Part shown: positions 10,905 to 14,731 of the stretch, piece by piece
How positions within the stretch are numbered: the stretch's first letter is position 1
Layout of the letters: each line of letters begins with the position of its first letter
NCBI GenBank assembly: GCA_016191285.1
Contig: JACPPA010000012.1
Span: 248,001-312,000, forward strand
Length of the DNA: 64,000 nucleotides
Direction of reading: 5' to 3'
Source of the DNA: Gammaproteobacteria bacterium
GTDB taxonomy: Bacteria; Pseudomonadota; Gammaproteobacteria; Ga0077536
The notes under the pieces: generated by a model
What the model saw: the letters and a program-made list of their open reading frames with translations, nothing else
Database searches by the model: none
What the model was told of the DNA's origin: nothing
Program-made: the position numbers and the translations under genes

Positions 10905-11525
10905 CTAGTTTCGTTGAGCCAACCTGCATCGCGCGCCACTCATGCAGAGCACTGCCGCGGCGATCGGCAAGACCCACCGGCCACCACCTTCGAGAAAGAC
11001 CATCCACTTCAGCACAAACGGCACCGCCCGCGCGACGTTGTCCGCCTCAGATGCTTGCTGGATCGCGAGTTCAATTAGCCCCACCAGCTGAAACGGTGCC
11101 GTCAACGCAAGCAATAGTGCGGAGACTGGAAGCCCGATAACGATGCTGAGCATGCGCTCGCGCCACTGCCGCGCCGGGTAGGCCAGGAGCGCGTTGAAAA
11201 AAAGCACCAGCGGGACCAGCACGTGCGCGATATCCGCGCTGGCCGGGACTGATTCACCAAACGGGATCTCGCGGCCTGGTCCCAGCGGAATTGGCACCAG
11301 GACATGTGCATCGAGCAGTAATTGGGTGCCATGTGCGCGCGGAACTAAACTGACTTTCGCAGAGTATGCGGGGGTAATTATTCTGATGGTCCGCTCGACC
11401 AGGGGTAGGTAACGCAGGACTATGGCGTCACCCCAGACATAGCCGATAGTCGCGAACACCAGCCACGCGACGACTAAGCGCAATGCGATCCTACGCAGTA
11501 AGTGTCGCGCCATCACGACCGGCAC
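10905..11525 (-). CDS. Exosortase H-associated membrane protein
   Basis: The 206-residue protein has an N-terminal TM helix (residues 13-32), an extracytoplasmic domain (about 33-95), and hydrophobic segments at about 100-116, 125-155 and 183-200. Its start overlaps the exosortase H gene by 35 bases in the same direction, so the two are cotranscribed. Proteins of this shape and position accompany XrtH in other genomes; the family assignment rests on that context plus overall appearance. Its role in sorting is not known to me. ATG 11513 is an alternative start. Confidence 0.75.
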   Translation of the reverse strand: MPVVMARHLLRRIALRLVVAWLVFATIGYVWGDAIVLRYLPLVERTIRIITPAYSAKVSLVPRAHGTQLLLDAHVLVPIPLGPGREIPFGESVPASADIAHVLVPLVLFFNALLAYPARQWRERMLSIVIGLPVSALLLALTAPFQLVGLIELAIQQASEADNVARAVPFVLKWMVFLEGGGRWVLPIAAAVLCMSGARCRLAQRN

Positions 11526-12024
11526 TGGCGAGCGCCGTCCACGCGATGAAGATCAGGCAGACCACGATGATCAACAGCGTCGGCACGAAATAGATGTGCA
11601 ACGGCAGGAAGAGCGCGGGTTTATACGCGGCGATAAAGTAGAGCCCAGCCAAGCGCAGCAAGTTCAACGCATAGACAGCGACCGCGCCCACCGCGATCCC
11701 CCTGAGTTTCATCCGCCCGGTGGCCGGGAAAGCCAGGATCGCGGCGCTCAGCAAGAACAAGGCACCAGAGCCATCGCAGCCGCGGACGATTTCAAGCACC
11801 GCGCGCAGTGAGACCAGACGATTCGCCATCGCGCTTGCGTGCTCACCGGGCGACAGGAAATTCACGAGTATCGTGCTGGGACGCACAAAATCCTGCAAAT
11901 AAAGCGTGTTGCGCAAGGTCTCATCTGGTACACAGAAATATGCCCAATAAAAAAGCCCATACAGCAGCAACATGCCGAGTGTGAAGCGTAGTGCTGTTCG
12001 CGCATTTGTGGGATTGAGTGTCAT
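11491..12024 (-). CDS. xrtH: Exosortase H (XrtH), IPTL-CTERM-type transpeptidase
   Basis: Exosortases are polytopic inner-membrane cysteine enzymes that recognise a C-terminal sorting tag; XrtH is paired with IPTLxxWG-CTERM proteins. This 177-residue protein is mostly membrane-embedded and carries the exosortase triad: Cys83 in VRGCDGSG, Arg124 in LNLLRLAG and His143 in PLHIYF. The partner membrane-protein gene overlaps its 3' end. No intact IPTL-tagged cargo protein is encoded in this window. The cargo must lie elsewhere, or included the wrecked RHS-type gene immediately upstream. Confidence 0.87.
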   Translation of the reverse strand: MTLNPTNARTALRFTLGMLLLYGLFYWAYFCVPDETLRNTLYLQDFVRPSTILVNFLSPGEHASAMANRLVSLRAVLEIVRGCDGSGALFLLSAAILAFPATGRMKLRGIAVGAVAVYALNLLRLAGLYFIAAYKPALFLPLHIYFVPTLLIIVVCLIFIAWTALASAGRDGATLTA

Positions 12025-12066
12025 GCGTCGTGTTGATGCGGACTGATAATCGACCGCCCTGGAAAT

Positions 12067-12456
12067 TTAGACTTGAGCAGGATTAAGGCGGCTGTTTATA
12101 CGATGATATCGAACTAGTGGGACGGCGCGACAGACCGGAATGCCGTGAAATCCATTGCATCGTACGCGTGACTGGTGCGGTCGAGCAGTCTGGGCAACCC
12201 CTGGGCTGGCGACGAGTAAGGTGTCGCTAATGGCGTTGCCATTCGCGTCATAGCGATAATCGCGGGTCTGGCCGACCGCATCGGTGCCACGGGTAATGCG
12301 GTTCACCGAATCGTAGGTGAAGGCGACGTTCTCGAAGTGCGCATTCACACCCGCCGTCAAGCGGCCCACGGGATCATAGGTCAGCGGCGCGACATCGCAC
12401 GGATCGTCCGTGACCAGACCATTGCTGTTCTTGTCCCCGCAGCGCGGCGGGATCAA
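12067..12456 (-). pseudogene. RHS/YD-repeat protein fragment
   Basis: The translated frame shows short RHS (YD) repeats: DPVGRLTAG, FTYDSVNRITRGTDAVGQ and YRYDANGN. It is preceded by an Asp-rich DKNSNGLVTDDP segment and ends soon after in unrelated sequence. In the neighbouring frame just upstream, NDAYGHGS runs into a stop, pointing to frameshift. RHS proteins are normally many hundreds of residues long, so this is a remnant. It probably belonged to the same gene as the toroid-repeat fragment at 13392-13766, with transposon debris between them. Confidence 0.7.
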
Positions 12457-12741
12457 GGGCCGCGCCGAGGCCGTCCTTATGGTGTTGGTACCGAACCGTG
12501 GCCATAAGCGTCATTTTTGATGATCGAACACGACCGCGCCGGGTTTCTGGATCTAAGCGTGGCGCGTTACGAAGGCAAAAGGCAAGCTCTGACGACCGGA
12601 ACCTCTCGTCGCACTTATCGAGACCGACCCGGCTTCCGTGAAACGGTGGCCCGGCATCACGTGAAATCACCGGCCGGCTTGCGTGAAATACGCACCGGGA
12701 GCCGTGCGAAAAAGTTTCAGCGTCACTGACCCCGTGATCGC
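12457..12741. other. Unidentified sequence between RHS and transposase remnants
   Basis: Open frames cross this stretch on both strands, but none shows a recognisable domain and each is a composite of neighbouring debris. On the minus strand the transposase frame runs on past its homology as LKLFRTAPGAYFTQAGR and stops at 12667. It may be the end of another mobile element. I see no functional feature. Confidence 0.4.
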
Positions 12742-13391
12742 CCCGGCAGGCGATTGGCTCAGCCACGCCAGCCAAGTCGCTTTGCTGCCCTCCTTGCGCT
12801 TGAGGAGTTCGTCCAGGCGCTGCCGGTGGACGCTTGTCAGGGTGTCGGTCAGAGCGGCGTGAATGCGCCGATTGGCGCGGGTGATCGCCTCGGCGCAGAT
12901 ACGTTCCATCACGCCGACCGCTGGCAGCAAAACGCTCTTGCGGCGCAACCCCTCGGCCAGTTCGCGTGCCAGCACAATACCCTTGTCGGTTTGCCAGGCC
13001 AGATCGTCCAAGCTATGCACGGCAGCCCGATAATGGCTCAGTGTCGTGAATGATTGGAAGCCGTAGGCTGATTGCAACTCCAACAAATGTTCGCGTCGCG
13101 TTTCGGCGCGTTGGCCGTAGTCGTTCCAGATATCGCCCGGCAACTTGAGCTGGTCTGCCACCATACGTAGGGTGCATCTGGTTCCGCGTCGGCAGTGAGC
13201 GTGATGCCCGGATAGCGCATGTAGCAAAGTTGCACGGCGAAGCCCAGCCGATTCGCCGCACCGCGATGCTGCCGAATGCGGGACAGATCGGCGTCGTTGA
13301 AGGTGTAGAGCCGGATCAACTCATCTTTGGCGTCGGGCAGTGCCAGCAGGCTTTCGCGCTCAGTCGCGGACAGGATCGAACGGCGTGGAAT
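12742..13391 (-). pseudogene. tnpA: Tn3-family transposase (TnpA) N-terminal remnant, frameshifted
   Basis: The frame starting at 13391 gives [18 protein letters not shown] and [16 protein letters not shown], then [14 protein letters not shown], the N-terminal (DUF4158) part of Tn3-family transposases. Near 13170 homology moves to another frame, which continues with [19 protein letters not shown] and [17 protein letters not shown]. It ends at about 12742 after WLAWLSQSPAG. The catalytic C-terminal two thirds are missing. The old initiator is now ATT, still behind a good GGAG site. So there are at least three lesions: lost start, frameshift and truncation. Confidence 0.85.
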
Positions 13392-13766
13392 GCAGACTCC
13401 TTCTTCTTGAAAACGAGGGTATGCGCCCCAGCCTTTATGGGGCTCGAACCGCGCGTCAGTCAGGTTGGTAAAAAGGGCATCGCTAGCGCGACCCGATCGA
13501 CCTAACACCGCCGCCTGGCGCGCGAGCGCGTCGATGCTCCCAGCGTGCGCGTTGTCCAACCAATTAAGCGCCGCGGCGCGTGGATATCCAATCGATACCC
13601 CCGCCGCTTCCATCCCCAGCAACGCGGTCGCCGTCGTCTGAATGTCGAGCCGTGGTGCGCTTATCCACCGGCCATCCCCCGCTTGATGGGAGATCAAATA
13701 CGCCAAGGCATGCGCTCGCGCGGTGTCAATCTTAGCTTGCGTCGCCGCCAATGCGCGGCCACTCAT
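13392..13766 (-). pseudogene. Fragment of a secreted alpha-alpha toroid (prenyltransferase/squalene-cyclase-like repeat) protein
   Basis: The frame contains repeats such as [29 protein letters not shown] and [20 protein letters not shown], ending at GWGAYPRF. These resemble the N-terminal toroid repeats found in some very large RHS proteins. The frame then runs directly into the ribosome-binding site and first codons of the Tn3 transposase remnant, which fused the two by insertion. The 5' end is also missing, because integrase debris lies just upstream. I infer that it and the RHS fragment at 12067-12456 were once one gene. Confidence 0.65.
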
Positions 13767-13825
13767 CGCGCTCGTGATAGTGACTGAATTTGGGCGTTTC
13801 GACCGGATTAATCCCATGGCAATCC

Positions 13826-13989
13826 TCAGACGCTCGGTCGTCTCGGGGATCCAATGTTACCGCTAAGTGTGGCTGGAGCAGCTGTGTCCCTTTCAAGCGC
13901 TCTAATTCCGCCGGTGAGTAGTGCGTGGTGATGCGCTCCGATCTGTGTCCTAACCAGCCCTGACGATCTTCGAAGGCGTTTAAGTTCAT
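13826..13989 (-). pseudogene. Tyrosine recombinase (integrase) C-terminal fragment
   Basis: The translation shows GWLGHRSERITTHYSPAELE, matching the end of phage/integron-type tyrosine recombinases, where the His and the nucleophilic Tyr of the active site lie. The rest of the enzyme is missing upstream, because the intact vapC gene abuts it. It marks the site as a former integration or recombination spot. The short open frame runs on to 13732, but the last part lacks resemblance to integrases. Confidence 0.7.
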
Positions 13990-14372
13990 GCGTTCTTCGA
14001 GACGCCATTGCCGTAGTAGGCGAGCTTTAACTCAGCGGCGATCGCTGCAAGACGCTTGTCCAAAGTCCACAGCCGCGCGGTGCCGGCGAGTGCGACCGAA
14101 GCCACGAGGTGCGCGTCGATATAGCCCACGCCGCGGCCCATGAGCGCATGTCGCTCGATGAAATTCATCACCTCGGCATTCGTCGCCTGCGGTGCGTCCG
14201 GCAAATCCCCCAACAGGCGCAGCACTTGGCGCCGATTTTTCAGATTGCCGCAAGCTAATTCGCCAAGGACGAATGGATGCATCAGAACTCGACCCTGCTC
14301 TAGGGCAGAGGCTAGTGCCGGCGCGCCCTTGCGCAGATGAGCGATCCAGACCGAGGTATCGACCAGGATCAT
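13986..14372 (-). CDS. vapC: VapC-type PIN-domain toxin ribonuclease
   Basis: This 128-residue PIN protein has the acidic metal site visible: Asp5 in ILVDTSVW, Glu in LGELACG, Asp in GYIDAHLVAS and Asp in LWTLDKRL. VapC toxins cleave specific RNAs, often tRNA or rRNA, when freed from their antitoxin. The gene overlaps the antitoxin gene by 4 bases (ATGA-type coupling). Its length is normal and all acidic residues are present, so the toxin looks intact despite the decayed surroundings. Confidence 0.92.
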   Translation of the reverse strand: MILVDTSVWIAHLRKGAPALASALEQGRVLMHPFVLGELACGNLKNRRQVLRLLGDLPDAPQATNAEVMNFIERHALMGRGVGYIDAHLVASVALAGTARLWTLDKRLAAIAAELKLAYYGNGVSKNA

Positions 14373-14566
14373 CTGGTCCGGGCGCGGCGACGAGGTATGG
14401 ACTCCAAGCGAGGTTCCGTGCCGCCGAGTCGGGCCAGGCGCCGTGCGCTTTCACGCTCGATAAGCGCCTTGAGCCCTTCGTGGATCAAAGTCGTGCGCTC
14501 TTTCGTTCCCGTGATCCGCTGTGCTTCGGCCAATAGTTGATCATCCAGATTGATAGTGGTGCGCAT
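14369..14566 (-). CDS. vapB: VapB-type antitoxin (ribbon-helix-helix)
   Basis: The 65-residue antitoxin begins MRTTINLDDQLLAEA, the ribbon-helix-helix DNA-binding motif of VapB proteins that start this way, and has a basic C-terminal tail (RRRARTR) expected to bind VapC. ATG 14566 follows AGGAG by 7 bases, which decides the start over the longer frame to 14674. VapB normally neutralises VapC and, with it, represses its own promoter. A candidate operator lies 33 bases upstream. Confidence 0.9.
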   Translation of the reverse strand: MRTTINLDDQLLAEAQRITGTKERTTLIHEGLKALIERESARRLARLGGTEPRLESIPRRRARTR

Positions 14567-14598
14567 AGTGTTTCTCCTGTCGCGAGTGCGCCTAGTGT

Positions 14599-14612
14599 AC
14601 ATCATGTGATGT
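14599..14612 (-). promoter_or_regulatory. Candidate VapB operator (inverted repeat)
   Basis: ACATCA and TGATGT form perfect 6-base arms around a TG spacer, 33 bases upstream of the vapB start codon. Short inverted repeats at this place are the usual binding sites of ribbon-helix-helix antitoxins. The link is inferred from position and symmetry only. Confidence 0.5.
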
Positions 14613-14731
14613 CCTAAACGATGCATCGCCAGAGTTCTGCACGGTACGCGGGCGCGCTTCCGGCTAGTTGACACCGGCGACTCCGGGCACTTCGATCTTA
14701 AGGACCGACTCGAGGATCGCGGACACGCCTG

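What the first reader, a model, noticed from the sequence alone, without database searches (positions are those of the whole stretch)
10905..13989. Exosortase H next to a shattered RHS/toroid gene
Intact XrtH and its partner protein lie directly downstream of fragments of a large secreted repeat protein interrupted by a Tn3-type transposase. The wrecked gene may have been one cargo of the sorting system, leaving an orphan enzyme that serves distant substrates.
Basis: partly seen in the sequence, partly recalled or inferred. Interest (0 to 1): 0.5.

Follow-up and report, generated by a model that had tools for sequence, protein, structure and literature searches.

The report
Orphaned exosortase of a toxin module
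The window holds an intact protein-sorting enzyme and its helper beside the debris of two neighbouring genes; relatives show that these genes form a linked set in which the enzyme's tagged partner protein sits next to a large secreted Rhs toxin.

Summary
The exosortase at 11491-12024(-) is intact, but it is XrtM (136 bits, cut-off 125), not XrtH (52.7, cut-off 86). A conserved membrane partner follows it. The 'shattered RHS/toroid gene' is the remains of two genes: the N-terminus of a secreted squalene-cyclase-like toroid protein and about 100 codons of an RHS gene, with a Tn3 transposase piece between. Intact versions occur in Methylococcaceae and one Chromatiales genome: toroid protein with a C-terminal tag (QVPALPxWAM...), RHS polymorphic toxin (signal peptide, dead transglutaminase domain, variable toxin end), immunity-like genes, xrtM, partner. 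The tag is on the toroid protein, not the RHS. In 201 genomes of that order, 21 of 36 xrtM genes lie within 12 kb of an RHS core (0.7 expected); 12 of 15 toroid-bearing genomes have XrtM. XrtM-linked toroids carry the tag in 12 of 12 cases, unlinked ones in 1 of 5. The window's genome has no detectable XrtM tag, and its own XrtA and XrtD suit its PEP-CTERM-type tags, so XrtM looks orphaned. Inferred: XrtM anchors the toroid protein, which displays or retains the Sec-exported toxin.

The parts
11491..12024 (-). xrtM, exosortase family protein XrtM, 177 aa, intact
   Evidence: TIGR04300 136 bits over cut-off 125; TIGR04177 (XrtH) 52.7 under 86; invariant Cys83/Arg124/His143
10905..11525 (-). XrtM partner: membrane protein, four helices with a small beta domain, 202-206 aa (GTG at 11525 or ATG at 11513)
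   Evidence: No Pfam or NCBIfam match at E<=0.1; homologue beside xrtM in 35 of 37 loci; model mean pLDDT 95.5; no PDB match at E<=0.001
12148..12489 (-). remnant of an RHS polymorphic toxin gene (middle of the RHS array); best-matching part 12211-12444
   Evidence: PF05593; aligned to residues 1400-1476 of L069 RHS (56%) and 1420-1526 of L062 RHS (35%); single match of this piece in the own genome at E<=0.001
13407..13754 (-). remnant of the toroid cargo gene (about its N-terminal quarter; the part that would hold the C-terminal tag is gone)
   Evidence: tblastn to L062 toroid 41.5%, E 1e-17, and L069 toroid 39%, E 6e-13; no other copy in the own genome and none in 95 relatives at E<=1e-4
12742..13376 (-). 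Tn3-family transposase, N-terminal fragment only, in two frames
   Evidence: NF033527 positions 3-198 of 954; PF13700

Best explanation
The locus is a decayed copy of a module whose intact form is: toroid cargo, RHS toxin, immunity-like gene(s), xrtM and partner. In the intact form the toroid protein (signal peptide, squalene-cyclase-like alpha/alpha toroid, TSP3 repeat, Ig-like domain) ends in a roughly 28-residue tag, [VI]Px[LMV]PxW-like motif + hydrophobic helix + basic tail, recognised by the adjacent dedicated exosortase XrtM. XrtM, with its membrane partner, would cut the tag in the inner membrane and transfer the protein to an anchor on its way to the cell surface. The neighbouring RHS protein (Sec-type signal peptide, transglutaminase-like domain without the catalytic Cys, RHS array, variable C-terminal toxin) has no tag; it most likely docks on the anchored toroid protein, so that the sorting system fixes or displays the toxin on the surface. 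In the window, insertion of a Tn3-type element and deletions (the cause is inferred) removed most of cargo and toxin but left xrtM and partner intact, now without a detectable substrate. Shown here: gene identities, ancestral order of the remnants, linkage, the tag/no-tag contrast, and no tag found in this genome. Inferred: tag cleavage, anchoring, toroid-RHS docking, surface display.
For: Remnants lie in the ancestral order and strand (toroid, RHS, xrtM, partner), as in L062/G100, L063/G101, L065/G103 and L077/G113. 21 of 36 XrtM places in 201 genomes lie within 12 kb of an RHS core, 0.72 expected, 0 of 100,000 random placements as high. 12 of 15 toroid-bearing genomes have XrtM; hypergeometric 5e-10, not corrected for kinship. 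Tag present in 12 of 12 XrtM-linked toroid genes and 1 of 5 unlinked ones (exact p 0.002); in unlinked G269 a tag-like stretch follows the stop. Of 28 tag hits in 54 genomes, 22 lie within 13 kb of an xrtM. RHS-linked XrtM fall in three separately supported groups and three layouts: RHS upstream, divergent (G228b, G106), downstream (G177). RHS ends carry NucA/NucB (2 of 6 scanned) or HNH (1 of 6) nuclease domains, ComJ being next to both NucA-type genes.
Against: No biochemical or genetic evidence for any step. 15 of 36 XrtM places have no RHS core within 12 kb, and XrtM loci also hold other tagged proteins (subtilases, a pro-kumamolisin protein, an ExeM nuclease, RCC1 and nucleotidase-like proteins), so RHS linkage is one use of XrtM, not its definition. 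Many RHS-linked XrtM are close relatives, so the statistics overstate independence. The tag contrast is partly a difference of subfamily: three of the four untagged toroids (G228 third copy, G232, Spartinivicinus) are a longer form, 566-588 aa, at 225-232 bits where scored. G215 has a tagged toroid but no XrtM match at E<=1e-15; G228's third, untagged toroid-RHS pair stands in a genome with XrtM elsewhere. Profile A6 was built mostly from XrtM-adjacent proteins, so the adjacency count is partly by construction; only the scarcity of non-adjacent hits is independent. 15 of 36 XrtM-bearing genomes have no A6 hit. Toroid-RHS contact was not modelled.
Confidence: 0.7

Rival explanations
1. Co-location only: RHS toxin genes and xrtM cassettes both ride on plasmids and genomic islands and cluster there without working together.
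For: The three plasmid records with xrtM, all Methylomonas, also hold RHS genes; two are typed mobilizable. Integrases or recombinases lie nearby in two. 15 of 36 xrtM places lack an RHS core within 12 kb.
Against: The tagged gene lies directly upstream of the RHS gene and the tag tracks XrtM linkage (12 of 12 against 1 of 5). The set recurs in separate XrtM groups and three layouts. Only 4 tag hits in the 36 XrtM-bearing genomes searched lie away from xrtM or on another contig.
Confidence: 0.17
2. One reading: XrtH with an RHS cargo carrying an IPTLxxWG tag, now serving distant IPTL-tagged substrates.
For: The TIGR04177 model does ring at 52.7 bits. XrtM tags resemble IPTL tags; G177's toroid tag reads IPTLPEWG. 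Some short tagged proteins upstream of RHS genes carry one YD repeat.
Against: TIGR04300 scores 136 bits. The partner shows no similarity to two XrtH neighbours (hhalign probability under 1%, single sequences on one side). 0 of 23 RHS-like ORFs with their 3' end are tagged. No XrtM-type tag hit in G000; IPTL tags proper were not searched there.
Confidence: 0.04
3. XrtM in this genome is not orphaned: it works on VPLPA-type PEP-CTERM proteins or on a tag too divergent for the profile.
For: The ORF, its catalytic residues and its partner are intact. Some XrtM-linked proteins elsewhere carry VPLPxW tags in genomes where A6 found nothing at E<=0.001 (G013, G109). Two of the 12 tags (VPVPGAVGL, VPVPAALPL) are of an intermediate kind.
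Against: XrtD and XrtA are both present; by eye six tags are of the PEP kind and four of the VPLPA kind. A V[AP][LF]PxW codon pattern gave 11 hits in the own genome, none at a tag-like C-terminus, against 16 for the reversed control pattern.
Confidence: 0.25

Closest known systems
XrtM exosortase family (TIGR04300)
   Same: Sequence family, conserved Cys/Arg/His, size; annotated xrtM in two Methylomonas plasmids
   Different: The family name seen here states no cargo; a partner protein, a tag type and several cargo classes are attached to it here
XrtH / IPTL-CTERM system (TIGR04177, TIGR04174, NF041730)
   Same: Small exosortase, one membrane partner, related tag (IPTL model 13-34 bits on eight XrtM-linked proteins)
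   Different: Enzyme below the XrtH cut-off; partner not similar to two XrtH neighbours; tag consensus VPxLPxW, one to three hits in each of the genomes with any, mostly beside xrtM
Sec-dependent RHS polymorphic toxins with an inactive transglutaminase domain (PMC3482391, passages seen)
   Same: Signal-peptide-like start, transglutaminase-like domain without the Cys (three read by eye), RHS array, variable nuclease ends, ComJ beside NucA-type ends
   Different: That paper's held text (the first 300,000 of 357,715 characters) has no 'sortase', 'CTERM', 'toroid' or 'squalene'; the exosortase and the tagged toroid neighbour are additional here

Membership tests
XrtM (TIGR04300) | Score over the curated cut-off | tested here: met
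   136 against 125 bits
XrtM (TIGR04300) | Exosortase Cys-Arg-His set | tested here: met
   Invariant C83, R124, H143 over nine proteins; their catalytic role is recalled, not from a call
XrtM (TIGR04300) | Proteolytic/transpeptidase activity | not testable with these tools
   needs experiment
XrtH (TIGR04177) | Score over the curated cut-off | tested here: not met
   52.7 against 86 bits; whole-genome search 52.4 bits, below cut-off
XrtH (TIGR04177) | XrtH-associated membrane protein beside it | tested here: not met
   No NCBIfam match for the partner at E<=0.1, while a true XrtH neighbour scores 171.6 with NF041730; hhalign of the partner profile to two XrtH neighbours 0.3-0.5%
RHS polymorphic toxin (intact relatives) | RHS repeats with variable toxin C-terminus and adjacent immunity gene | tested here: met
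   PF05593 and DUF6531 in four of four; NucA/NucB in two and HNH in one of six C-termini; ComJ in two of ten small ORFs
RHS polymorphic toxin (window fragment) | Complete RHS gene with toxin end | tested here: not met
   Only about 100 codons of mid-array remain
Squalene-cyclase-like toroid | Alpha/alpha toroid fold | tested here: met
   In the intact L062 relative: PF13243 over its cut-off (below it for L069); model of the L062 protein, mean pLDDT only 66.8, matches squalene-hopene cyclase 8pak, E 1e-7
Squalene-cyclase-like toroid | Cyclase catalytic motif or activity | not tested
   not examined; a binding role is assumed

The most novel reading that the evidence does not exclude
XrtM modules include an exosortase-dependent toxin display system: a dedicated exosortase and its partner anchor a tagged toroid protein on the outer surface, and that protein holds a Sec-exported Rhs polymorphic toxin through its dead transglutaminase domain, giving a surface-presented, contact-acting Rhs toxin independent of type VI secretion. 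The window shows the system's decay, with the sorting enzyme outliving its cargo.
Probability: 0.35. Interest if true: 0.82.

Novelty: new variant of a known kind. Interest (0 to 1): 0.62.

Why it matters
Exosortase cargo specificity and the route of Sec-exported Rhs toxins to the cell surface are both open (my judgement). A recurring gene set that places a dedicated exosortase, a tagged toroid protein and an Rhs toxin with immunity gene side by side makes both testable in cultured methanotrophs such as Methylomonas. It also proposes cargo, a tag consensus and a conserved membrane partner for XrtM; the partner had no match in Pfam or NCBIfam.

Tried and rejected
XrtH identity: rejected on curated scores. 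RHS as the tagged cargo: rejected, 0 of 23 RHS-like ORFs with their 3' end in 37 xrtM regions are flagged by my hydropathy script (26 found, 3 cut); that script is a heuristic with many false flags elsewhere, so the tag counts used above rest on the A6 profile and on reading the C-termini. Nuance: the 151-224 aa tagged proteins preceding RHS genes in L056, L089, L151, L158, L162 and L173 include some with one YD repeat (L056 PF05593 25 bits; L158 TIGR01643 15.9 bits). A V[AP][LF]PxW codon pattern in the own genome: 11 hits, none tag-like, reversed control 16. Partner fold: no PDB match. First genome-contig scan with the single window protein: nothing. Rfam and tRNA scans of the window: nothing. 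PHROGs and PADLOC were not searched.

Papers: seven of ten searches used, of open-licence papers only. Lists were capped where long (30 of 102, 15 of 195). No listed title or abstract start links exosortases with Rhs toxins. PMC8416519 holds both words; passages seen, 'exosortase' only in its reference list. PMC8262886 holds 'PEP-CTERM' and 'Rhs' once each and was not opened. Passages only were seen of PMC3482391, PMC11072679 and PMC5874918. The main exosortase paper (PMC3256604) is not held, so XrtM may be described there or elsewhere in print.

Rows dropped: five genomes whose XrtM hit was only about 60 bits (G149, G201, G213, G219, G220) are outside the 26-genome/36-place counts; G111 (toroid and xrtM on different contigs) and G236 (toroid broken off) are in neither group of the tag contrast; L060 fell out of the tree (49 of 50 rows).
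Full report
What is in the window. On the minus strand follow one another: a toroid-protein remnant (13407-13754), a broken Tn3-family transposase piece (12742-13376), an RHS remnant (12148-12489), then an intact exosortase gene (11491-12024) overlapping an intact partner gene (10905-11525). The exosortase is XrtM: 136 bits against TIGR04300 (cut-off 125), against 52.7 for XrtH (cut-off 86). Cys83, Arg124 and His143 are invariant among nine XrtM proteins aligned.

Two genes, not one. The toroid piece aligns with residues 16-133 of a 462-residue protein in L062 (41.5% identity, E 1e-17) and with L069's homologue. The RHS piece aligns with residues 1400-1476 of L069's RHS protein (56%, E 8e-18) and at the corresponding place of L062's. 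In the relatives these are two adjacent genes, toroid first. The transposase piece covers about the first fifth of a Tn3 transposase model. Neither remnant has another copy in the genome at the thresholds used; three RHS cores lie on other contigs.

Relatives of the same family. XrtM-type hits occur in 14 of 96 genomes, the own one included (3 over the cut-off). I fetched 11 neighbourhoods. Homologues of the partner lie near xrtM in the eight closest XrtM loci. Six loci scanned for YD repeats had none. Some XrtM genes adjoin other secreted proteins with a tag-like C-terminus: a subtilase in G010 and a protein with a pro-kumamolisin activation domain in G013.

The intact module. A genome-contig scan with a four-sequence profile gave 28 XrtM loci, and plasmid records gave three more, all Methylomonas. 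In L062, L063, L065 and L077 the order is toroid protein ending TQVPxLPxxAM..., an RHS gene of about 2,470-2,510 codons, small ORFs, xrtM, partner. In the Chromatiales locus L069 xrtM is divergent from toroid-RHS. RHS proteins begin with signal-peptide-like sequences (by eye), carry a transglutaminase-like domain, DUF6531 and RHS repeats (four of four scanned), and end in variable domains: NucA/NucB in two, HNH in one, nothing recognised in three of six scanned. ComJ lies next to both NucA-type genes (two of ten small ORFs scanned). None of the three transglutaminase-like domains read has a Cys where I expect the catalytic one (by eye). This agrees with the inactive domains described in PMC3482391 (passages seen).

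Linkage in one order. In 201 genomes of the order of Methylomonas isolate FW.007 (G100; Methylococcales by name, recalled), XrtM of at least 100 bits occurs in 26 genomes, 36 places (five genomes with hits near 60 bits dropped). RHS cores (TIGR03696 at E<=1e-10) lie within 12 kb of 21 of the 36, in 15 of 26 genomes; random placement predicts 0.72, and 0 of 100,000 draws reached 21 (genome sizes rounded). The toroid profile hits 15 of 201 genomes at E<=1e-30, 12 of them with XrtM (hypergeometric 5e-10). In 10 of those 12 the two genes share a contig within about 12.5 kb; in G111 and G236 they lie on different contigs. None of these figures is corrected for kinship. On the XrtM tree RHS-linked genes fall in three separately supported groups that also hold unlinked ones (with G228b/c; with G177; the main Methylococcaceae clade); the deeper forks, and the places of the window and G106, are unresolved. 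Gene order differs between them, so one inherited arrangement does not explain the linkage.

The tag and the enzyme. The 12 toroid genes linked to xrtM whose 3' end is present all end in the tag: G100, G101, G103, G106, G113, G177, G198, G228b, G228d, G272, G274, G279 (G272's gene is split over two ORFs). Of five without linked xrtM, four lack it (G228 third copy, G232, G269, a Spartinivicinus plasmid, of which only about 19 kb were read and whose host chromosome was not searched) and one has it (G215) (exact p 0.002). In G269 a tag-like stretch follows the stop codon. Three of the untagged are a longer form of the protein, so part of the contrast is one of subfamily. A 28-position tag profile searched in 54 genomes gave 28 hits at E<=0.001: hits in 21 of 36 XrtM-bearing genomes and 2 of 18 others (G215; G126, inside a 1,915-residue frame); 22 of 28 lie within 13 kb of an xrtM. 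Fifteen XrtM-bearing genomes, the window's included, have no hit; some have variant tags (VPLPxW in G013 and G109).

The partner. It lies beside xrtM in 35 of 37 loci (none found in G285 and G236). Its model is confident (mean pLDDT 95.5): one long helix, a small beta domain, three further helices. It has no PDB match at E<=0.001 and no detected similarity to two XrtH neighbours. That it helps XrtM is inferred.

The window's enzyme as an orphan. The genome has three exosortases: XrtA, XrtD and XrtM. Twelve PEP-CTERM-type proteins were found, eight over the curated cut-off. By eye six tags are of the PEP kind, four of the VPLPA kind served by XrtD, two intermediate (assignment of PEP tags to XrtA is recalled). 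None of the XrtM kind was found. Selection on xrtM was not measured.

Mechanism, with marks. Shown: identities, order, linkage, tag contrast, toxin and immunity domains. Inferred from exosortase biology (recalled): XrtM removes the tag and anchors the toroid protein. Inferred from linkage and architecture only: the anchored toroid protein holds the Sec-exported RHS toxin, perhaps through the dead transglutaminase domain. The toroid model (mean pLDDT 66.8) resembles squalene-hopene cyclase (E 1e-7), transcobalamin (3e-4) and, weakly, complement C4 (4e-3); the last two bind ligands or targets (recalled), so a binding role is plausible. Because XrtM loci also hold tagged proteases and nucleases, the toxin link would be one specialisation of XrtM.

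Noticed in passing
window 13986-14674 (-): VapC-like PIN toxin and VapB antitoxin ORFs directly upstream of the wreck, apparently intact.
   Followed up: no
G228 and G261 (L149-L153, L168, L169, L172, L178): One genome carries five xrtM copies and another four, each with a partner gene; eight of the nine lie within 12 kb of an RHS core.
   Followed up: partly
L019 10845-13478; L071 10349-12298; L081 2919-5162; L184 7392-10013: Subtilase-like proteases with XrtM-type C-termini adjoin the xrtM-partner pair in four loci, a second recurring cargo class.
   Followed up: partly
L018 3569-4484: A truncated xrtM (109 aa) with an apparently intact partner lies about 7 kb from a full xrtM-partner pair; a PepA-type flocculation PEP-CTERM protein lies between them.
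   Followed up: no
L182 5004-6396: Toroid gene split into two ORFs beside xrtM in G272, a genome without any RHS core match: possibly a second decaying module like the window's.
   Followed up: partly
L149, L153, L161 and L215: Proteins with a toroid-like part, a repeat region (internalin-like by profile in L215, leucine-rich by eye in the others) and an XrtM-type tag, on contigs that also hold RHS genes: a variant cargo.
   Followed up: no
L211 1501-3081 (-): An MbnH/MauG-like di-heme protein (below the curated cut-offs) carries an XrtM-type tag in G019, on a different contig from xrtM.
   Followed up: no
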